This document shows, piece by piece, positions 1 through 29,579 of a DNA stretch of 30,465 nucleotides. The DNA lies in IMG/VR virus record IMGVR_UViG_3300030106_005591, positions 1 through 30,465 of that record; one strand, written 5' to 3'. Below the pieces are notes generated by a model. That model was given only the letters and a program-made list of their open reading frames with translations. It did not search any database and was not told the origin of the DNA. The DNA comes from a virus. Position numbers and translations under genes: made by a program. Every line of letters begins with the position of its first letter. Position 1 is the stretch's first letter.

Positions 1-627
1 AAGGAAGATGGTTTGATCAGTGAGTACAGCGAGTTCTCTTTGGTCAAGCAGTACTTCGATCTGGTCGAGGCTGAAGAGAATGCGCTCAAGCAGATCACCT
101 ACAGCGTCAAGCAGTTCCCCATCTATCAAGCATTCCTAGAGGATGTGAAAGGTGTAGGCCCAACCATGGCTGCGGTGATCATCTCAGGCTTTGACATCCA
201 TAAGGCTCAGTATGCATCTTCTCTGTGGGCGTATGCCGGGCTTGATGTGGTTGGCGACAAGGGCAGGTCTAGGATCAAAGAGCACCTAGTCGATCAGACT
301 TACATCGATGCTGAAGGTAAAGAGCAAACCAAGAAAGGTATCTCTTTCAATCCGTTTATGAAGACGAAGCTGATCGGTGTGCTTGGCTCGTCGTTTGTAA
401 AGACCAACGGCAAGTACCGTGAGATCTACGATAACTACAAGAATCGTATCACCCACATGCCTGCTCACGCTGAGAAGACCAAGGGTCACCTCAACAACAT
501 GGCGATACGCTACACAGTGAAGCGATTCCTTGTGGACTTGTACACCGCGTGGCGCACGCTAGAGGGACTGCCGGTTGCGGATGAGTATTCCAAAGGCAAG
601 CTTGGGATCAATCACAAGGTTGCTTGA
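1..627 (+). CDS. IS110/IS1111-type recombinase-like protein, C-terminal part (5' truncated by window edge)
   Basis: The frame is open from base 1, so the true start lies outside the window; the TTG at 13 is probably internal. The visible ~208 residues begin with a helical stretch (about residues 10-40 from the TTG) and continue into DVKGVGPTMAAVIISGF...ASSLWAYAGL. This is the helix-hairpin-helix signature of the Transposase_20 (IS116/IS110/IS902) domain. A GISFNPFMKTKL segment follows, with its Ser codon at 343-345, resembling the GxSKxGNxxLR region of the family. The end, GHLNNMAIRYTVKRFLVDLYTAWRTLEGL, matches the usual C-terminal helix. IS110-family enzymes combine a RuvC-like DEDD domain with this domain and recombine DNA under guidance of a bridge RNA. 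The DEDD half would lie upstream and cannot be checked here. The stop codon (625-627) falls inside the first degenerate motif of the array. The gene seems embedded in the phage left-arm operon rather than in a recognisable IS. Confidence 0.75.
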   Translation, partial: KEDGLISEYSEFSLVKQYFDLVEAEENALKQITYSVKQFPIYQAFLEDVKGVGPTMAAVIISGFDIHKAQYASSLWAYAGLDVVGDKGRSRIKEHLVDQTYIDAEGKEQTKKGISFNPFMKTKLIGVLGSSFVKTNGKYREIYDNYKNRITHMPAHAEKTKGHLNNMAIRYTVKRFLVDLYTAWRTLEGLPVADEYSKGKLGINHKVA

Positions 628-1425
628 GCCATTTCACGGGAGAAAACCAAAGAGCAAGAGCGAGCCATGGAGTTTAAGAAAACCAGACTCGAAAAGCGAG
701 CCAAAGATAAATAGAAGACCACGTCGGCGAAGCGAGACAGAAATGCAAAGAAAACCAGTACCACTGAGCGAGCCAGAGATTTTGAGAAAACCAGCTCTCC
801 GGAGCGAGTCATTCCAAGGAAGACAGCCAAGTAAAATTAGCGAGCCACTTCGGCTTAGAAAGCCATAAAACCGAAGCGAGCCATGTGTCAGAAGAAAACC
901 ATTAAAAACAAGCGAGCCATGAAACCCGAGAAAACCAGAGCGTGCTAAGCGAGCCAAAGGAATTGAGAAAACCGTTCATAATAAGCGAGCCACTAAGAGC
1001 AAGAAAACCAACCAAGTGGAGCGAGCCATAATCGGTAAGAAAACCAGGTTAAATCAGCGAGCCAAACGCAGCGAGAAAACCATTGTACCTAAGCGAGCCA
1101 GGCGCAGTGAGAAAACCATTGTACCTAAGCGAGCCAAAGTCCATGAGAACACCAGGCCAGCCAAGCGCGTCATTATAGTAGAGCGACCCAGGTCGAGTAA
1201 GCGAGCCAGACCTGCCGAGAAAACCATACAACGAAAGCGAGCCAGTAGGATCTATACAAACAGACTCATCAAGCGAGCCATGGAACTAAAGAAACCCAGG
1301 CCTGATTAGCGAGCCAAGCGCAGGGAGAAAACCATTAATACAGAGCGAGCCAAGTTGAAAGAGAAAACCTCAAGTCGTAAGCGAGCCAATAGGGTCAAGA
1401 CCCCCCAAAAGAACATAGCGAATCA
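623..1425 (+). repeat. Alternating 9-nt motif / 9-nt spacer array (A-spacer-B-spacer, 36-nt period)
   Basis: I placed 45 motifs by hand. Type A (AGCGAGCCA) starts at 623, 659, 695, 731, 767, 803, 839, 875, 911, 948, 984, 1020, 1056, 1092, 1128, 1164, 1200, 1236, 1272, 1308, 1344, 1380 and 1417. Type B (AGAAAACCA) starts at 641, 677, 713, 749, 785, 821, 857, 893, 929, 966, 1002, 1038, 1074, 1110, 1146, 1182, 1218, 1254, 1290, 1326, 1362 and 1398. Eighteen of 23 A and 12 of 22 B are exact; the rest are degenerate, and the two terminal A copies are decayed. All spacers are 9 nt except two 10-nt ones (938-947 and 1407-1416). Spacers are essentially all different, except one that occurs twice (1083-1091 and 1119-1127). 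Both motif types share the pattern AG-M-R-A-R-CCA. Spacers carry stop codons in each forward frame and the slip at 947 shifts the frame, so this is very probably non-coding. It lies between two same-strand genes and would be co-transcribed with them. Repeat length is far below CRISPR repeats and there is no palindrome. Confidence 0.95.
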
Positions 1426-1718: not shown

Positions 1719-1867
1719 CAACGGAAGACTCATCTAAGTTCAAAGAACGTAAGCGTGCCGTGCTGCGGTGCATTTACAAATCACCAGAAGATAGCTGGGC
1801 CAAGAACTATTGGCGCAACACCTATCGCAAACTTATGGAAGAACGAAGAAAGCGCATATGGAGCTAA
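1709..1867 (+). CDS. Very small basic protein (52 aa), unknown
   Basis: A short frame runs from ATG 1709 to TAA 1865-1867. It is preceded by GAAAGGAT, a good ribosome-binding site, overlaps the upstream gene by 10 nt and the helicase start (ATG 1858) by 10 nt. This coupled arrangement is typical of real phage genes. The product starts MSLATEDSSKFKERKRAVLR and ends KLMEERRKRIWS. It is rich in Lys/Arg with aromatic residues in the middle (DSWAKNYWRNTYRK), which would suit a small nucleic-acid-binding protein, but no family is recognised. The function is unknown and the case for a gene rests on spacing and the ribosome-binding site. Confidence 0.6.
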   Translation: MSLATEDSSKFKERKRAVLRCIYKSPEDSWAKNYWRNTYRKLMEERRKRIWS

Positions 1868-2571
1868 GGTACTATCAGCGCGAGGCCGTTGATGCAGCGG
1901 TCCACTGGTTCAACACCCAAGACACGCATCCGCTCATCGTTCTACCGACAGGGTCTGGCAAGACAGTTGTCTTCGCCACACTGATCAAGGAGATCTTTGA
2001 GCGGGAGCCCGACTGCAGGATTCTGATCCTAGCTCACCGGCAAGAACTGGTCAGCCAGGCAGAAGATAAACTCAAGAAAGTATGGCCATGTGCGCCATCA
2101 GGCATCCTGGCTGCGGGTTTGAATCAATACGAAGTCGATGGGCGCATCGTCATTGCCAGTCGAGATACCTTGGCAACACCAAGCAGATTAGATACTGCTG
2201 GCGACTTTGACTACATCATCGTGGATGAAGCGCACCATGTGGCGCCAGACCTAAACACCCGGTATCGCAAGATCTTTGATCACTTTGAGTCCTCTATTTG
2301 GAGAACGCCACGCATACTGGGCGTGACCGCTACGCCCTATCGTATGGGCCAGGGCTTCATATACGGCCTTGAGGAGCACTTCTTCTCAGGCGTTGCCTAC
2401 CGTATAGGCATACCTGAAATGATCCAACAGGGCTTCCTGTGCCGCCTGTCGGCCTTCAAGGTAAACGATGAGGCTGTGATCGATGCATCAACTGCGCGGG
2501 TCAAGTTCAAGGGCGGCGAACATCGAGAAGCTGGCCATGGAAGATCAAACCATGCTGGCCATCATCGATGA
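1858..2571 (+). CDS. DEAD/DEAH-type helicase, N-terminal (RecA1) part, frameshifted
   Basis: A superfamily 2 helicase related to the SSL2/RecG/UvrB-like phage helicases starts at ATG 1858 (MELRYYQREAVDAA, a Q-motif-like start). Walker A GSGKT is at residues 32-36, motif Ia is ILAHRQELVSQ, motif II VDEAHH is at about 122-127, and motif III GVTATPYR has TATP at 157-160. This is the ATP-binding half of an enzyme that unwinds duplex DNA, presumably for phage replication or recombination. After VKFKGG (about position 2515) the frame loses homology and stops at 2571, while the remaining helicase motifs continue in the next forward frame (2483-3517). A one-base insertion in GGCGGCGAAC or a programmed +1 shift would explain this. 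It is coupled to the upstream 52-aa gene. Confidence 0.85.
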   Translation: MELRYYQREAVDAAVHWFNTQDTHPLIVLPTGSGKTVVFATLIKEIFEREPDCRILILAHRQELVSQAEDKLKKVWPCAPSGILAAGLNQYEVDGRIVIASRDTLATPSRLDTAGDFDYIIVDEAHHVAPDLNTRYRKIFDHFESSIWRTPRILGVTATPYRMGQGFIYGLEEHFFSGVAYRIGIPEMIQQGFLCRLSAFKVNDEAVIDASTARVKFKGGEHREAGHGRSNHAGHHR

Positions 2572-3517
2572 TTGGGTAGAGAAGGCATACACCAAAGGCC
2601 GACTGAGCACGGTGTTCTTTTGTATCACGGTGGCTCATGCCGAGAAGATGTGTATGTATCTCAGGCGAGCAGGCATAGAGGCTGCAGTTGTGACCGGCGA
2701 GACTCCAAAGAGAGAACGCGAAAATATCTTGGAGCGTTTTGAGGACGGTCAGATCAATGCGCTGTGCAACGTGTCTGTACTGACAGAAGGTTGGGATGCG
2801 CCACGCACAGACTGCATTGCGCTGCTTCGTCCTACCAAGTCACTAGGTTTATACGTTCAGATCTGTGGGCGAGGCATGCGCACTTGGGGTGACAAGAAAG
2901 ACTGCATGCTGCTGGACTACGGCGAGAACATGGATAGGCATGGCTGCATAGACACCGCTCGTCCATCGATCCCAAGCAAAGAAGACAAAGAGAAAGATCA
3001 AGAAACCAAGATATGGATATGTGATTCGTGCTTGGGCGTCAACGACTCAGATCGTGATACATGCATTGAGTGCGGTGCCTTGAAGCCAGCGCCTATCGAA
3101 CAGCCAAAGCTGTTTGATGAAGACAAGGATGCGGCATCAACACGCATGGCTGCGAGCGGCTCTGTGTTGTCTGATGAACTTCAAGATCCCGTGCAGGTGC
3201 ATGAGCGAATCAAGAACGTAGAGTGGGTTTCAGCTGAGTTAAAAACATCGAAGAATGGCAACGACTATCTCAATGTTATGTTTTTAAGTCCCGGCGACTA
3301 TTGGCCACAAAACATGCCAATCATGATCGGCATGAAAGGTAAGGCCGGTACGATGGCAGAAAAAAAGTGGCGGTCACTAACCAACGGCTTCCCGTGCCCA
3401 ACTAACATTAATCACGCTGTTGATCTGGTGAAACATGTAAAGGTGATGAGCCATATCAAACAAATCACTGTAAGAAAAGAAGGAAGATACTGGAATGTCG
3501 TTAGCGTCCATTTTTGA
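2483..3517 (+). CDS. DEAD/DEAH-type helicase, C-terminal (RecA2) part plus zinc ribbon
   Basis: This open frame continues the helicase of 1858-2571. The true junction is near 2511-2522, from which NIEKLAMEDQ follows on. It holds motif IV (TVFFCITVAHAEKM), motif V (NVSVLTEGWDAP) and motif VI (QICGRGMR). A four-cysteine zinc ribbon comes next (WICDSCLGVNDSDRDTCIECGAL), then a roughly 110-residue C-terminal domain (EWVSAELKTSKNGNDYLNV to WNVVSVHF) seen in related phage helicases. The ATG at 2483 lies inside the N-terminal part and is unlikely to be a real start, since an isolated RecA2 lobe would not be an active helicase. Its end overlaps the nuclease gene by 23 nt. If the frameshift is an assembly or sequencing error, one gene of about 550 codons spans 1858-3517. 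Confidence 0.85.
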   Translation: MHQLRGSSSRAANIEKLAMEDQTMLAIIDDWVEKAYTKGRLSTVFFCITVAHAEKMCMYLRRAGIEAAVVTGETPKRERENILERFEDGQINALCNVSVLTEGWDAPRTDCIALLRPTKSLGLYVQICGRGMRTWGDKKDCMLLDYGENMDRHGCIDTARPSIPSKEDKEKDQETKIWICDSCLGVNDSDRDTCIECGALKPAPIEQPKLFDEDKDAASTRMAASGSVLSDELQDPVQVHERIKNVEWVSAELKTSKNGNDYLNVMFLSPGDYWPQNMPIMIGMKGKAGTMAEKKWRSLTNGFPCPTNINHAVDLVKHVKVMSHIKQITVRKEGRYWNVVSVHF

Positions 3518-10894: not shown

Positions 10895-13787
10895 CCTTTG
10901 AGTAATCTACACGGTAGTAGCCGTCTTCACCCATGATCACAGCTGAAGGATCAACCTTAATTAACTCTTGAGCCATAACACCTTCAGTTGGCGCATCAAC
11001 GCCCATAGCTTTAGCAGTGTCATTCCAAGTCCATGTATACCAACCAACACCAGGTTGAACATCATCAACCTTCATGACGTTTTCTTTCAAACGAATATCG
11101 GAGGGTCGGGGAAAGAATGGCGCAACTGTGCCTGCAATACCAGCAATCTTCGAGAATGTGCTTGGTTGTTGATAAGCCTGATTTTGTTGAGCGCCAACGC
11201 CGTAACCAGATTGAAAGCCTGGCATGAACGGCTGTGCTTGCCCAAGAACTTGGAAGCCTCTTTGCATTCTCATAAATGGTTCATCTGCTAGCTGGGTTGC
11301 TGCTTTATACTGTGCATCAAGGCCACGTTGTTGTATGCCTCTACCAGCTGCGCCTAGTCCGCCAAGAGTTCCTATCTGGCCAGTCAACATATCAAAGCCT
11401 TGCTGACCCAGACCAGCTATACCAGCAGCACCAGCACGAGCTCCTTGTTGGCCAGCCTGGAACGCACTCAATGCATCGCCAAACGCACCACGAGATAGCC
11501 TATCTAGACCACCTGCTGCGCCAGCAATTCTGCTCATCCTGTCGCTGAATATGCCAGAACCTAGCTGTTGTCCAGACTGGAAGTCTCTTGCCAAGTTAGA
11601 AGCGATGTCTGCACGTTGACCTGCTAGACCACCAATACCTTGTTGTGCCTGTAAACCAAGAGCGCCACCTTGTTGCGCAAGTCTGCCTGCTAACTCTGAA
11701 GTAGATATACCTAGCTGTGCAGCACGTTGAGCAAGATCTCCTTGAGCTTGACCTGCTTGCAAGCCTAATTGACCTCGTTGTTGAGCTATTCTGTTCTGTA
11801 GTTCTTGTGTAGAAATGCCTAGATCTGCAGCTTGTCTTGCAAGATCGGCTTGAGTTTGACCTGCTTGTAAACCTAACTGACCTTGCTGCTGAGCTATCCT
11901 GTTTTGTAATTCTTGTGTAGAAATGCCTAGATCTGCAGCTTGTCTTGCAATATCGGCTTGAGTTTGACCTCTCTGAAGACCTAATTGACCTCGTTGTTGA
12001 GCAAGTCTGCCCTGCAATTCTTTAGTGGATATACCTAGCTGTGCAGCACGTTGAGCAAGATCTCCTTGAGCTTGACGTGCTTGCAAACCTAATTGACCTT
12101 GTTGTTGAGCTATTCTGTTTTGTAATTCTTGTGTAGAAATACCTAGTTGTGCAGCACGTTGAGCAATGTCTGCTTGAGAGGTCAGACCGCTAAGACCAAG
12201 CTGCCCGCCTTCAAGTGCGCTACGTTGAGCAAGTTGCTCTGCACTTAGCCCTAAGTTAGCTGCTTGCTGTGCAGCACTAATACCTGTTTGAGCGCCTGCT
12301 TGGCCCAGTGACCCAGTTAATTGTGCAGCTTGTTGCCTACGAGCTTGTGCTTGCTCAAACGCTTGTTGTGCTGCTTGTCTTGCTTGCTGAAATCCTTGTG
12401 ATCGTAGCTCTGCACCCGTCTTAGCTTGTTGTTGCAGCACATTACGATCAATCTCTGCCTGTGCTATGGCACCACGAGAGCCGCCAAATGCACCGGCTCT
12501 CACTGCTTGGTCACGAGCAGCAATTTTTTGTTGCTCACCCAGCCTTGCGATTTCAGCTTGCTGTGCGTCAATCACATCTCTTGTGAAGGGGTCTTGGAAT
12601 CTTGATATGGCTGAAGGATCAAACTGACCACCTGTGCCTGCAAGTCCAGCGATACCTTGAAGCGCAGTGGCTCTACCCATCTCACCAGCAGAACGAAGGT
12701 CTTGTCCTGCCATCTGTGTCTGCATTCTTGCTCGTTGTGCTGCATCTAATGCATCAGCTTGAGCACCGCCAACTTGGCCCATAATTCCTGAACCAGCGCG
12801 GCGCATAGCTCTTTGGCCAATACGAGATTCTCTGCCTGCACCAGCCCCGGCTCTGCGCATACCACTCATTGCAGAGGCAACATCTCTGCGAATGTCGCGC
12901 CCCGCAGCAACTAACCTCGCTTGGCCAATGTCAGCTTCCCGTCCCACACCTAGCTCTGAAGCCCTTATGCCAGCTAACGCAGATCCAATGTCACGATCAA
13001 TTCCTCGTCCTGCAGTTCTTAGCCCTCTTTGGCCAGCGAGACTTTGTGCTACCGCTCTATCGCCAGCGATATCCATGCCTCTTTGGGAAGCTAAAACATC
13101 TCTGCGAATATCACGTCCTGCAGTTCTTAGCCCTCTTTGGCCAGCGAGACTTTGTGCTACCGCTCTATCGCCAGCGATATCCATGCCTCTTTGGGAAGCT
13201 AAAACATCTCTGCGAATGTCGCGCCCCGCAACACCTAATCCCGCTTGGCCAATATCAGCCTCTCGCCCTGCGGCTCTAGCTGCGTCCATCAAACCTCTTT
13301 GAGCGATTGCGGCTTCTCTGCCCATACCTAATTCAGCGCCACGGATGCCGATATCAGCAGCACCTCTCATCATGGCTCTAGCGCCTTGATCCATAAACTG
13401 TTGACCCATGCGCGGGTCAAAAGCGCCTAAGCTTTGCTCATACAACTGACGAGCACGAGGGTCTGCAAAAGCACCTGCAGATCTTGGGTCAAAACCACGG
13501 GCAGATTGTCTGAATAAATTTTGAGCCTCTGTTAGTTGCTGACCAAAGCCACCAAGGCCACCAGCTAAGTTGCGAGCCTGCACCTCTAATGGTGAAAGAC
13601 CAGCTACTTGTTGAACTGGCACGGGTATTTGTTGAGTTATCAATCCATACTCAGGATTGAAATATAAATCTTGAAGCTGTCTTGCTGCTAATTCTTGTGC
13701 AGGATCAGCGTATGTCTGCGAGGCGCTTGGCTGAACTACAGGTACATTTGTTTCAACTTCTTTTGTTTTTGAGTCAAAGATACCCAT
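10869..13787 (-). CDS. 972-aa Gln/Ala/Gly-rich repeat protein with C-terminal S74 chaperone-like domain
   Basis: The protein is built largely of 36-residue repeats in two families. The N-terminal family (GRDIRRDVLASQRGMDIAGD...) includes two copies that are nearly identical at DNA level. The central family (AAQLGISTQELQNRIAQQQG...) has five or six copies. Both would form long amphipathic helices. The last ~75 residues begin SDIRLKENVMKVDDV and contain WYTWTWN, GVMAQEL and YRVDYSKV, the pattern of the Peptidase_S74 intramolecular chaperone. In that family the domain self-cleaves just before the Ser of the SDxRxK motif after trimer assembly. S74 domains usually end beta-helical fibres, so one on a helical Gln-rich protein is unusual. 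It is joined to the 352-aa gene by a TAATG junction. Probably a trimeric virion component; exact location unknown. Confidence 0.7.
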   Translation of the reverse strand: MGIFDSKTKEVETNVPVVQPSASQTYADPAQELAARQLQDLYFNPEYGLITQQIPVPVQQVAGLSPLEVQARNLAGGLGGFGQQLTEAQNLFRQSARGFDPRSAGAFADPRARQLYEQSLGAFDPRMGQQFMDQGARAMMRGAADIGIRGAELGMGREAAIAQRGLMDAARAAGREADIGQAGLGVAGRDIRRDVLASQRGMDIAGDRAVAQSLAGQRGLRTAGRDIRRDVLASQRGMDIAGDRAVAQSLAGQRGLRTAGRGIDRDIGSALAGIRASELGVGREADIGQARLVAAGRDIRRDVASAMSGMRRAGAGAGRESRIGQRAMRRAGSGIMGQVGGAQADALDAAQRARMQTQMAGQDLRSAGEMGRATALQGIAGLAGTGGQFDPSAISRFQDPFTRDVIDAQQAEIARLGEQQKIAARDQAVRAGAFGGSRGAIAQAEIDRNVLQQQAKTGAELRSQGFQQARQAAQQAFEQAQARRQQAAQLTGSLGQAGAQTGISAAQQAANLGLSAEQLAQRSALEGGQLGLSGLTSQADIAQRAAQLGISTQELQNRIAQQQGQLGLQARQAQGDLAQRAAQLGISTKELQGRLAQQRGQLGLQRGQTQADIARQAADLGISTQELQNRIAQQQGQLGLQAGQTQADLARQAADLGISTQELQNRIAQQRGQLGLQAGQAQGDLAQRAAQLGISTSELAGRLAQQGGALGLQAQQGIGGLAGQRADIASNLARDFQSGQQLGSGIFSDRMSRIAGAAGGLDRLSRGAFGDALSAFQAGQQGARAGAAGIAGLGQQGFDMLTGQIGTLGGLGAAGRGIQQRGLDAQYKAATQLADEPFMRMQRGFQVLGQAQPFMPGFQSGYGVGAQQNQAYQQPSTFSKIAGIAGTVAPFFPRPSDIRLKENVMKVDDVQPGVGWYTWTWNDTAKAMGVDAPTEGVMAQELIKVDPSAVIMGEDGYYRVDYSKVDRGQKQA
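11600..12265 (-). repeat. Diverged 108-bp (36-aa) repeats in the 972-aa gene
   Basis: Equivalent points of the unit occur at about 11712, 11820, 11928, 12036, 12144 and 12252, exactly 108 nt apart. They encode AA(Q/D/N)LGIST-x-EL-x-x-R-x-AQQ-x-GQLGLQ-type units. Sequence identity between units varies, with the 11820 and 11928 copies most alike. The period equals that of the separate N-terminal repeat family of the same gene, so both probably build one continuous helical fold. Confidence 0.85.
13006..13217 (-). repeat. Tandem 108-bp direct repeat inside the 972-aa gene
   Basis: Bases 13006-13109 and 13114-13217 are identical over 104 nt at an offset of 108 nt. They encode two copies of a 36-residue unit (RRDVLASQRGMDIAGDRAVA...). 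Near-perfect DNA identity, in contrast with diverged units on either side, implies a recent duplication or gene conversion. It could equally be a spot where short-read assembly miscounts copies. Confidence 0.9.
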
Positions 13788-21663: not shown

Positions 21664-24600
21664 CTATGATTCGAGCGCGGCGATACGCGCTTCTAGCTCT
21701 TGAATTGCTTTAACTAACGGCACAACAAACATTTCGTAAGACACGCCTTGTTTATTATCTTCACTTGTTTCATCAACGACCCATCCAGCAAAATCAGTGA
21801 CACTATTATCATCCATTGCTTGTTTCACTTCTTGAGCGATGAAGCCGTACATCTTGTTTGTGTAATCAGCAGAGGTTTTGCTTGAGTTATGCTCTGAAAG
21901 GCTTGCGTCTAACTCGGAGGGAGCCTTCCATTTATAAGTGACTGTTCTCAAAGCCTTGATAAAATCTAGGCCGCAATCAGTGTTGGTCGCTATATCTTTT
22001 TTCCAACGCTCATCTGAAGAACGAGAAAAAGAGGCGTTAGCTGTGAAGTTATTACTAACAATATTGCTGGCTTTACCAAACTTGAAATGATCGGACGTTG
22101 AAGTTACTTCGTGACCAAGACCAATGGCGTTAGCGTCACCGCTTGCGCAATCAACAGCATAGCCCACCAACGTATTATTGATCCCAGTTGAAATTGTGTC
22201 TCCAGCAAGCCCCCCAACGACAGTGTTCTGGGTGCCTGTGGTGACTGCTTTGCCTGCTCCGTACCCAACCCCAACATTATAAATATCTGCATTGGTAGTG
22301 TTGTTTTGAACTTGTAAAGCAGCTACACCAATCGCAACATTCCTATCGCCTGTCGTCTCTGCACTTAAAGAGTCATAACCTGCGGCGACATTAGAGTTGC
22401 CTACAGTTAAAGCATCGCCTGAAAGCGATCCAACCAGGGTATTCAGGGTTCCCGTAGTGATCACTAGGCCACTGTGAAAACCGACCGCCGTATTGTGTGA
22501 ATCTGTAGCAGTGGTGAAGTTTTGATTAGTTAAAGAACTTTTTCCGATAGCTGTTGATTTACTTCCCTGAGTATCAGCATCTAATGCGGCATAACCAACA
22601 GCAACGTTAAAGTCAGCGTCGGTCAAAGCATCTCCAGCGACAGATCCGATGAGAGTGTTTTGAATTCCAGTCGAGAGTATGGAGCCTGCTCCGTAACCAA
22701 CCGCTACATTGTAAGCAGCAGTCGCCGTAGTGTAGTTTTGGCTCGCTAAAGCTAAACCACCTAGTGCGGTGCTGAAGCTACCCAAGGTGTTTGCGTCTAA
22801 GGTTCGATGTCCTACTCCGACATTTCCATCTGCGTCTGTCGTAGAATCTCCAGACAAACCGCCGATGAAGACGTTCTGGACTCCCGTCGTGATTGCCGCA
22901 CCTGCGGCATGACCTGCCGCCACATTAAAAGCATCAGTCGCAGTAGTCATATTTTGCGCGGTCAGTGCATTCATACCGACTGCCACAGACTTACTACCCA
23001 AAGTGTCAGACGTGAGTGCCGCAACACCTACTGCAACATTGAAATCCGCATCTGTCAGAGCATCACCTGCAAGACCACCCACAAAAGTGTTGTTGACTCC
23101 CGTAGTGATTGAGGCACCTGCGTTAGAACCAACTGCTACATTGTAATGTGATGTGGCAGTAGTAAAGTTTTGTGAATTTAATGCTGAGTTACCGATAGCT
23201 ACTGCGGTACTACCTTGGGTGTCTGCACTCAGAGCGACATACCCCATCGCCACGTTGTTATCAGCATCTGTCAGAGCATCACCTGCAAGACCACCGACGA
23301 TGGTGTTGTTAACTCCCGTAGTGATGTCGTTACCTGCGTTGAAGCCTACGGCCACGTTGTAATTGTCTGTGGTCGTTGTGAAGTTTTGGTTTAGAAGGGC
23401 ACCGTATCCAAGAGCTACCGCTCTATCCCCTAGAGTATCTGTGCTAAGAGCGCCAAACCCCAACGCAGTATTATTATTTCCTGAGGTGAGCGCGTCACCA
23501 ACAAGGCCGCCAATCAGGGTGTTATGAGTTCCAGTGGTAATATCGTTACCGGCATCTCTCCCTACTGCCACGTTGTAAACATTTGTAGCTGTCGTAAAGT
23601 TTTGATTTTGCAACGCACCATGACCTACCGCAACGTTTTGACTCCCTAGAGTGTCAGCGCCTAGTGCGGATACGCCAATTGCCACATTGCTGTCAGCATC
23701 AGTTAGAGCATCTCCTGCGAGACCGCCTACAAGCGTGTTATGTATCCCCGTAGTGATGTCGTTACCAGCGTTGTAGCCCACGGCTATGTTGTAATTGTCT
23801 GTGGTTGTTGTGAAGTTTTGGTTTTGAAGGGCACCGTATCCGATAGCTACCGCTCTATCCCCAAGAGTATCTGTGCTAAGGGCGACATATCCCATCGCAG
23901 TATTATTATTTCCTGAGGTGAGCGCATCACCAACAAGACCGCCTACAAGCGTGTTTAGATCTCCCGAAGTGATTGAATTACCTGCTTTGTGTCCAACAGC
24001 TACGTTATGAACAAAACCTGAAGTAGTATTATCTTGATTTTGTAAAGCTTGATGGCCTATTGCAATTGATGACTGACCAGTCGTATCAGCACTTAACGCG
24101 CTAGTTCCGATTGCTACATTAAAACTACCAGTTGTCAGGGCATCACCGGCTAAACCGCCATGAATATTGTTGTTCGTCCCTGTGGTAACGGACACACCAG
24201 CTTGATAGCCAATTGCGTTGTTATAGGAATTTGTAGCCGTAGTATTGTTTTGAGCAAGTAAAGCTCCATCACCAATCGCTACTGACCTGCTTCCTAACAC
24301 GTCTGAACCTAGAGCCTGAACACCGATTGCAATATTACTGTCAGCATCGGTAAGAGCGTCTCCTGCTAATGCTCCAAGAATCACATTAGAAGTTCCCGTA
24401 GTGATACTTCGTCCGGCATCGTAACCAACGGCTACATTGTTGCTATTTGTGGCAGTCGTAAAATTTTGTGAGCCTAGCGCGTTGTATCCGACAGCAGTGG
24501 ATCGACTTCCTAAAGTATCAGCATCTCCTGCAAGAGCGCCCACTAAAGTGTTTTGGATTCCAGTGGTTATAGCACCACCTGCCTCGTAACCTATGCCAAT

Positions 24601-29001: not shown

Positions 29002-29511
29002 TTACTGGTCAGCAAAAGCAGGCGCAGTAGTGCTCGTTACATTTCCAAAGATCTGATAGTTGGTTGTATTCAAGCCGACAATAGTCACTTCAAAGCCAGC
29101 AGGCACGTTCAGCTGTATGCTGCTGTTGGAGTTTCCATCAGAGAATACTGAGCTAACTTCATTGCCGTCTGTATCTAAGAAAGTAACACCACCAATATAA
29201 AAATTAGTGTTGCCGGGAGTAACAATAAGCGCGTCCGTAGCATCAGCAGCGCCACCAGCGTATACAAACTTGAAAATAGATCCAGCAACAGGAGCAGGAA
29301 GCGTATAAGTATTATCTTGGCCACCGTCTGGAACAAGAAGAATCCTTCCACTGTGAGTTGCGTTGGTTAGGGTTACGTTGCCGTCTGAGAGGCTAACTGG
29401 AGCGCCACCGTAAGTTGTGATCTCGGTAATCGCACCGCTAGTTGCGTCTTTGCTGATGGACTTAAATCCATTCTCTGATCGGACTGGACCCGAAAAAGTC
29501 GTATTAGCCAT
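29002..29511 (-). CDS. Decoration-like structural protein (169 aa)
   Basis: MANTTFSGPVRSENGFKSISKDATSGAITEITTYGGAPVSLSDGNVTL is the usual opening of a small structural family beside the marine phage capsid gene. The remainder is beta-rich with Gly/Asp loops (RILLVPDGGQDNTYTLPAPVAGSIFKFVYAGG, VTFLDTDGNEVSSVFSDGNSNSS). A capsid surface (decoration) role is inferred. It follows the capsid gene after a 122-nt gap that holds a terminator. Confidence 0.65.
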   Translation of the reverse strand: MANTTFSGPVRSENGFKSISKDATSGAITEITTYGGAPVSLSDGNVTLTNATHSGRILLVPDGGQDNTYTLPAPVAGSIFKFVYAGGAADATDALIVTPGNTNFYIGGVTFLDTDGNEVSSVFSDGNSNSSIQLNVPAGFEVTIVGLNTTNYQIFGNVTSTTAPAFADQ

Positions 29512-29579
29512 TGTTATCTCCTGTCGTGGCTAGTGTCAGGCACGGTATGCGCCTGTCAGGGATAGATTGTTTATACAGC

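What the first reader, a model, noticed from the sequence alone, without database searches (positions are those of the whole stretch)
623..1425. An array of two alternating 9-nt motifs with 9-nt variable spacers, 45 motifs long
The pattern A-spacer-B-spacer (A = AGCGAGCCA, B = AGAAAACCA) keeps an 18-nt step over about 800 bp with only two 1-nt deviations (the spacers at 938-947 and 1407-1416). Repeats are conserved while the 9-nt segments between them are nearly all different, so the layout is CRISPR-like in logic but not in scale: no palindrome, repeats of only 9 nt, and two alternating repeat types. The array lies in a phage operon where space is expensive, and stop codons plus the slip rule out a coding explanation. 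I know of no described array of this kind.
Basis: seen in the sequence. Interest (0 to 1): 0.95.

Follow-up and report, generated by a model that had tools for sequence, protein, structure and literature searches.

The report
Phage TIGR guide-RNA array with TasA
The odd array of two alternating short repeats is a TIGR array, a guide-RNA array of the TIGR-Tas system described in 2025, here in a marine phage beside a gene for its nuclease-free RNA-binding partner TasA; it is a real but new member of a known kind, with good relatives for studying how such arrays change.

Summary
It is a dual-repeat TIGR array: edge repeat AGCGAGCCA, loop repeat AGAAAACCA, 36-nt unit, 22 units, truncated edge repeats at both ends. 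It starts inside the stop codon of a gene whose product is a Tas protein. That gene is cut off by the record's start; relatives show a 289-aa solo Nop protein (TasA), matched by sequence and predicted fold to solved TasH and TasR. The experimentally studied Salicola phage CGphi29 array (SpTIGR) has almost the same repeats. Relatives add three things: many IMG/VR phages carry such arrays next to a tas gene; phages with about 93-96% identical tasA share only 1-4 of about 20 units exactly, almost always as whole spacer A-loop-spacer B blocks; and bases of neighbouring edge repeats covary across the predicted tigRNA. No convincing target was found in the phages' own genomes, in related phage DNA, or in the few guides scanned against IMG/VR. 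Most likely role: RNA-guided DNA binding against competing mobile elements (inferred).

The parts
1..627 (+). tasA gene, 3' part (5' end lies beyond the start of the record; full-length relative is 289 aa, L002:4758-5627)
   Evidence: PDB TasR 9mty E=1.5e-13 and TasH 21kl E=4.9e-7; fold Z 19-21 to TasH/TasR
623..1425 (+). [quoted passage not shown]
623..631 (+). 5'-truncated first edge repeat (CTTGAGCCA), overlapping the tasA stop codon TGA (625-627)
   Evidence: same in relatives
659..667 (+). example edge repeat AGCGAGCCA (box D-like AG, box C-like CCA)
677..685 (+). example loop repeat AGAAAACCA (A-rich between AG and CCA)
938..947 (+). irregular 10-nt spacer B of unit 9
1164..1208 (+). unit 16 (spacer A TTATAGTAG, loop AGCGACCCA, spacer B GGTCGAGTA) with both flanking edge repeats; the unit most widely shared with other phages
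1407..1416 (+). irregular 10-nt spacer B of unit 22 (9 nt in relatives)
1417..1425 (+). 3'-truncated last edge repeat (AGCGAATCA)
   Evidence: same end in L002, L004, L007, L008
1446..1718 (+). downstream small gene of unknown function, start of the next operon part; differs between relatives
   Evidence: no Pfam or PHROG match

Best explanation
It is a dual-repeat TIGR array with its TasA protein (TIGR-Tas system, TasA type) in a marine tailed phage. Inferred mechanism: the array is transcribed with tasA, cut once per edge repeat into about 22 tigRNAs of 36 nt, each bound by a TasA dimer through the AG...CCA (box D/box C) motifs of the loop repeat and of the joined edge-repeat halves. The two spacers of one tigRNA pair with opposite strands of one dsDNA site. 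TasA has no nuclease, so it would act by binding or bending DNA. Most likely targets are competing phages or other mobile elements (my estimate for this role: 0.4). Shown here: array anatomy, homology and fold of the protein, gene-array linkage, unit turnover, covariation across the predicted tigRNA. Shown by others for relatives: 36-nt processing, dual-strand targeting. Not shown for this locus: expression, processing, binding, targets. The confidence below is for the identification as TIGR-TasA, not for the role.
For: Array anatomy equals the published definition, including truncated edge repeats at both ends and an A-rich loop repeat. The neighbour gene matches solved TasR (1.5e-13) and TasH (4.9e-7) directly, and by family profile TasH 4.2e-82, TasR 2.1e-51, IS621 3.5e-5; the predicted fold (pLDDT 91.5) aligns to TasH Z 20.8, TasR Z 19.3, IS110-family IS621 Z 14.9, Prp31/Nop5 about 9. 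Salicola phage CGphi29, the reference TasH system, has RAGCGAGYCA/RAGACAACCA repeats with 8-nt spacers and its Tas is found by this protein. Of 116 array loci fetched by the array pattern alone, 83 have a tas gene within 60 bp, all on the same strand. Across 115 arrays, edge position 3 of the next repeat covaries with position 6 of the previous one (C-G to T-A; 14 cells, permutation mean 1.9, max 6 of 1000; about six independent arrays after removing mis-registered rows), as expected if the RNA unit runs from the middle of one edge repeat to the middle of the next.
Against: No rho-independent terminator was seen on the + strand after the array, though published arrays typically have one. No target: no excess of spacer A + rc(spacer B) matches in about 1.0 Mb of related phage DNA nor in five phage records' own sequence plus the window. 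The window's tas gene is incomplete; the absence of a nuclease domain is inferred from relatives 93-96% identical in DNA. The role in competition is inference only.
Confidence: 0.95

Rival explanations
1. A new, undescribed guide or regulatory RNA array unrelated to known systems.
For: Repeat and spacer sizes do not fit CRISPR; Rfam has no match here.
Against: Matches the TIGR definition point by point and a reference TIGR array almost letter by letter; adjacent Tas protein.
Confidence: 0.01
2. IS110-family transposase gene with its bridge RNA or repeated ends (an insertion sequence remnant).
For: Weak Pfam Transposase_20 hit; PHROGs label 'transposase'; fold Z about 15 to IS621.
Against: No N-terminal DEDD/RuvC domain in full-length relatives; much closer to TasH/TasR; array of 22 units rather than one bridge RNA; the gene-array pair is kept across diverse phages.
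Confidence: 0.01
3. TIGR-TasA array whose guides regulate the phage's own genes or replication rather than foreign DNA.
For: TasA lacks a nuclease; the array sits in an operon with helicase and Cas4-like exonuclease genes.
Against: No own-genome site matches any own unit with 0-1 mismatches in the dual-strand geometry in six records; spacers turn over quickly between close relatives, unlike conserved self-regulation.
Confidence: 0.15
4. TIGR-TasA array whose guides bind host chromosomal loci (host take-over or counter-defence).
For: Not excluded: host genomes were not searched; the host is unknown.
Against: Fast unit turnover is expected more for phage or plasmid targets than for conserved host genes (inference).
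Confidence: 0.3

Closest known systems
SpTIGR / TasH of Salicola phage CGphi29 (Faure et al. 2025, PMC12045711; HQ634153, L141)
   Same: Nearly identical edge repeat (RAGCGAGYCA) and very similar loop repeat (RAGACAACCA vs RAGAAAACCA), 36-nt unit, 8-nt spacers, homologous Nop domain, tailed phage, array downstream of the gene.
   Different: CGphi29 has an N-terminal HNH nuclease (TasH), a shorter array (about 10-11 units) and a terminator-like end; here the protein is TasA, with 22 units and no obvious terminator.
TasA-type TIGR systems (FpTIGR of Flavonifractor plautii; PMC12045711)
   Same: Solo Nop-domain protein with a dual-repeat array.
   Different: FpTIGR sequence was not compared here.
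TasR (TaTasR, PDB 9mty)
   Same: Nop domain, sequence E=1.5e-13, fold Z 19.3; CCA box C motif in both repeats.
   Different: TasR has a RuvC nuclease; its box D is UG, here AG.
Microcystis phage Mvi-JY20 and Acidianus tailed spindle virus arrays (L142, L143)
   Same: Homologous Tas-like gene followed by a dual-repeat array.
   Different: Different repeat sequences.
CRISPR arrays
   Same: Guide-array logic: constant repeats, variable spacers.
   Different: CRISPR repeats are longer and of one type; here two short alternating repeats; the neighbouring protein matches Tas, not a Cas family.

Membership tests
TIGR-Tas (dual-repeat TIGR array) | Two distinct alternating 8-12-nt repeats interspaced by about 9-nt spacers | tested here: met
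[quoted passage not shown]
   623-631 CTTGAGCCA and 1417-1425 AGCGAATCA, same in relatives
TIGR-Tas (dual-repeat TIGR array) | Adjacent gene for a Nop-domain Tas protein | tested here: met
   linkage in 83 of 116 array loci
TIGR-Tas (dual-repeat TIGR array) | Box D and box C motifs shared by edge and loop repeats | tested here: met
   AG at the start and CCA at the end of both repeats; AG instead of the UG of TasR, as in SpTIGR
TIGR-Tas (dual-repeat TIGR array) | Extra edge-repeat base pair across the two ends of a tigRNA, supported by covariation | tested here: met
   C3-G6 across neighbouring edges: 14 double changes vs permutation mean 1.9, max 6 (for rows to discount); three arrays with A2-T7 in place of G2-C7
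TIGR-Tas (dual-repeat TIGR array) | Rho-independent terminator after the array (typical, not defining) | tested here: inconclusive
   simple consensus scan finds none on the + strand; the array is inside an operon
TIGR-Tas (dual-repeat TIGR array) | Processing into 36-nt tigRNAs | not testable with these tools
   needs RNA sequencing
TIGR-Tas (dual-repeat TIGR array) | Dual-strand, two-spacer DNA targeting | not testable with these tools
   target searches found no significant sites
TasA subtype | Solo Nop domain, no HNH or RuvC nuclease | tested here: met
   full-length relatives of 289 aa start with the Nop coiled coil; no nuclease domain in Pfam; the window's own gene lacks its 5' part
CRISPR-Cas | One repeat type of about 25-36 nt | tested here: not met
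   two alternating 9-10-nt repeats
IS110 transposase | N-terminal DEDD/RuvC domain plus C-terminal domain | tested here: not met
   only the C-terminal/Nop-like part is present in full-length relatives

The most novel reading that the evidence does not exclude
TIGR arrays evolve by gain, loss and exchange of whole A-loop-B units among related marine phages, much faster than the tas gene, so that the array acts as a quickly changing set of nuclease-free guides against competing phages. One weak target candidate fits the published geometry: unit 16 matches a site in the primase gene of a few HMO-2011-like phage contigs.
Probability: 0.3. Interest if true: 0.75.

Novelty: new member of a known kind. 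Interest (0 to 1): 0.42.

Why it matters
TIGR-Tas was described only in 2025; its natural targets and the way its arrays change are stated as open (PMC12045711). This phage family gives about 15 distinct arrays with nearly the same repeats and a tas gene 73-96% identical to the window's in DNA, which makes array evolution and target search testable. It also shows that this repeat type (SpTIGR-like) is common in phage metagenome contigs.

Tried and rejected
Coding explanation: stops in all six frames. Self-targets: none with 0-1 mismatches in the window, L002, L008, L012, L019, L022 records. Targets in about 1 Mb of related phage DNA, four orientations, gaps -2 to 6: no excess over shuffled spacer pairing. 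IMG/VR pattern scans for three guides: TTATAGTAG/GGTCGAGTA strict, 0 hits; GAAGGACAT/TCCTTACRA, 5 contigs in two groups; GACGAATG/AGGTGCAA, 22 contigs, mostly scattered genes; unit 16 with 8-nt spacers, 28 contigs. In the last scan the largest group (6 contigs) lies in a primase of HMO-2011-like phages, but five of the six encode an identical protein, i.e. about one species, no other unit of the family hits these contigs with 0-1 mismatches, and many scattered hits are expected for a 16-nt pattern, so I treat it as unproven. Codon-phase test of spacer variants: within-spacer distances divisible by 3 in 18 of 47 against 25% expected, only suggestive; no significant positional depletion that would mark a seed. 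A first structure model from a shallow alignment was poor and was replaced by one from 60 sequences. Rfam has no family for the array. The archaeal virus paper cited as an earlier sighting could not be read.

Full report
Observation. The array is exactly as described: 45 alternating motifs at 623-1425, 18-nt step, two 19-nt steps. Its score is 518.5 against at most 30.5 in 300 shuffles. Pooled over all arrays found, the base before each motif is a purine in about 78-86% of cases, so the natural reading is 10-nt repeats RAGCGAGCCA and RAGAAAACCA with 8-nt spacers, like the 16-nt total stated for SpTIGR. The two slips may be indels private to this record or assembly errors: the arrays of L002, L003, L004 and L008 have none, and the helicase-like gene of this record is split into two frames (1795-2568, 2480-3514) but whole in L002 and L008.

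Neighbourhood. The array begins inside the stop codon of the upstream gene and ends about 20 bp before the next start codon. The upstream gene runs off the start of the record, which is all that is held (30,465 bases, a virus record). Pfam sees only a weak IS110 C-terminal match. 22 relatives were fetched from IMG/VR; the full-length protein of L002 is 289 aa.

Identification. The protein matches solved TasR (9mty, E=1.5e-13) and TasH (21kl, E=4.9e-7) by sequence alone; a profile of 60 homologues raises this to 2.1e-51 and 4.2e-82, with IS621 at 3.5e-5. The AlphaFold2 model (pLDDT 91.5, pTM 0.86) aligns over its whole length to TasH-tigRNA complexes (Z 20.8, 223 residues, 2.7 A) and to TasR (Z 19.3, 190 residues, 1.6 A), then to IS110-family recombinases (about 15) and to Prp31/Nop5 (about 9). 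The published definition of TIGR arrays (two alternating 8-12-nt repeats, about 9-nt spacers, truncated edge repeats at the ends, neighbouring Nop-domain gene) is met. Among named phages, tblastn finds Salicola phage CGphi29, Microcystis phage Mvi-JY20, Acidianus tailed spindle virus and Rhizobium phage RHph_X2_25. CGphi29 is the reference TasH system of the paper, and its array reads AAGCGAGCCA-8 nt-AAGACAACCA-8 nt: the same array type as here. No nuclease domain is found in the full-length relative of the window's protein, so it is TasA. Other loci with the same repeats have an HNH-bearing protein such as L050.

Array first, protein second. Of 116 such loci with a parsed array, 83 have a tas gene within 60 bp, all on the same strand; several of the rest are contig ends (counts read off that table). 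This is independent support for the pairing of array and protein.

How the arrays change. Exactly shared units fall with tas divergence: phages whose tasA is 93-96% identical in DNA to the window's share 1-4 of 14-22 units (3 of 8 in one contig cut inside the array); at 88% none exactly and two nearly; below 80% none. Over all arrays, 130 distinct units are shared whole between contigs. Identical A with unrelated B (14 cases) or identical B with unrelated A (25) are fewer and mostly between unrelated contigs, where chance 9-mer identity is expected; variant loop repeats stay with their spacers in 93 of 115 such comparisons. Order is mostly kept, with some inversions. Two unit families occur both in phages close to the window and in phages (L016, L019, L020, L023) whose tasA is only about 74-79% identical to the window's, which suggests exchange or strong conservation. 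Array L007 is interrupted by about 280 bp of other sequence.

Covariation. If the RNA unit runs from the middle of one edge repeat to the middle of the next, the 3' half of edge n should pair with the 5' half of edge n+1. Changes C3 to T in edge n+1 go with G6 to A in edge n: 14 double changes that keep a pair, against a permutation mean of 1.9 and a maximum of 6 in 1000; within one repeat it is 7, with 8 reached by permutation. Five of the 14 cells are doubtful (four from a stretch of L078 where edge and loop were swapped, one from L082); the others come from about seven arrays, two cells being related units. At position pair 2-7, three arrays have A-T in place of G-C, while G-T is common. 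This fits the edge-repeat pair reported for TasR.

Targets. Using the published geometry (spacer A on one strand, spacer B on the other; my derivation from the 8-nt 3' overhangs gives 5'-spacer A-gap-reverse complement of spacer B), there is no clear excess of matches over shuffled pairings in about 1 Mb of related phage DNA, and no own-genome site with 0-1 mismatches. Scans of IMG/VR for three guides gave scattered hits. One group, unit 16 against the primase of HMO-2011-like phage contigs, keeps the expected spacing but is not statistically convincing.

Mechanism and limits. By relation to characterised systems I infer transcription with tasA, cutting in edge repeats, loading on a TasA dimer and dual-strand DNA binding without cutting. 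Expression, processing and binding are not shown for this locus. The foreign-target role rests on fast unit turnover and absence of self-matches, both indirect. The phage's major head protein is 61-67% identical to those of Pelagibacter phages HTVC023P and HTVC027P and related marine phages, so a marine bacterial host is likely but unnamed.

Verdict. A genuine and well-made observation; a new member of a known, recently described kind; the claim of no precedent is not supported.

Noticed in passing
window 1795-3514: The DNA helicase-like gene is broken into two overlapping frames (1795-2568 and 2480-3514), while it is one frame of about 592-608 codons in L002 and L008; likely an indel or assembly error in this record.
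   Followed up: partly
window 29509-29561 (-): Rfam Mu-gpT-DE RNA (RF03012), 70.9 bits, just downstream of the major head protein gene.
   Followed up: no
L007:2829-3107: The TIGR array of L007 (also L009, L010) is interrupted by about 280 bp of non-array sequence with a short reading frame, the array continuing afterwards.
   Followed up: partly
L050, L024, L053, L055, L085, L103, L112, L128: Phage loci with nearly the same repeats carry Tas proteins with an HNH-like N-terminal region (TasH-like; HNH matched weakly by Pfam in L050, the others judged from sequence only).
   Followed up: partly
L033, L088, L114, L135: Arrays upstream of tas genes can be read in frame as 'ERA...EKP...'-like peptides, because the unit is 36 nt; automatic gene callers would extend the tas gene into the array.
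   Followed up: no
L142:3020-3370: Microcystis phage Mvi-JY20 has an unannotated dual-repeat array (edge ATGCGAGCCA, loop ACGAAACCCA) with a terminator-like hairpin after its Tas-like gene.
   Followed up: partly
window 11701-12178 and 13006-13251; 23276-23955: Long tandem repeats (108-nt and 216-nt units) inside the large structural genes on the - strand.
   Followed up: no
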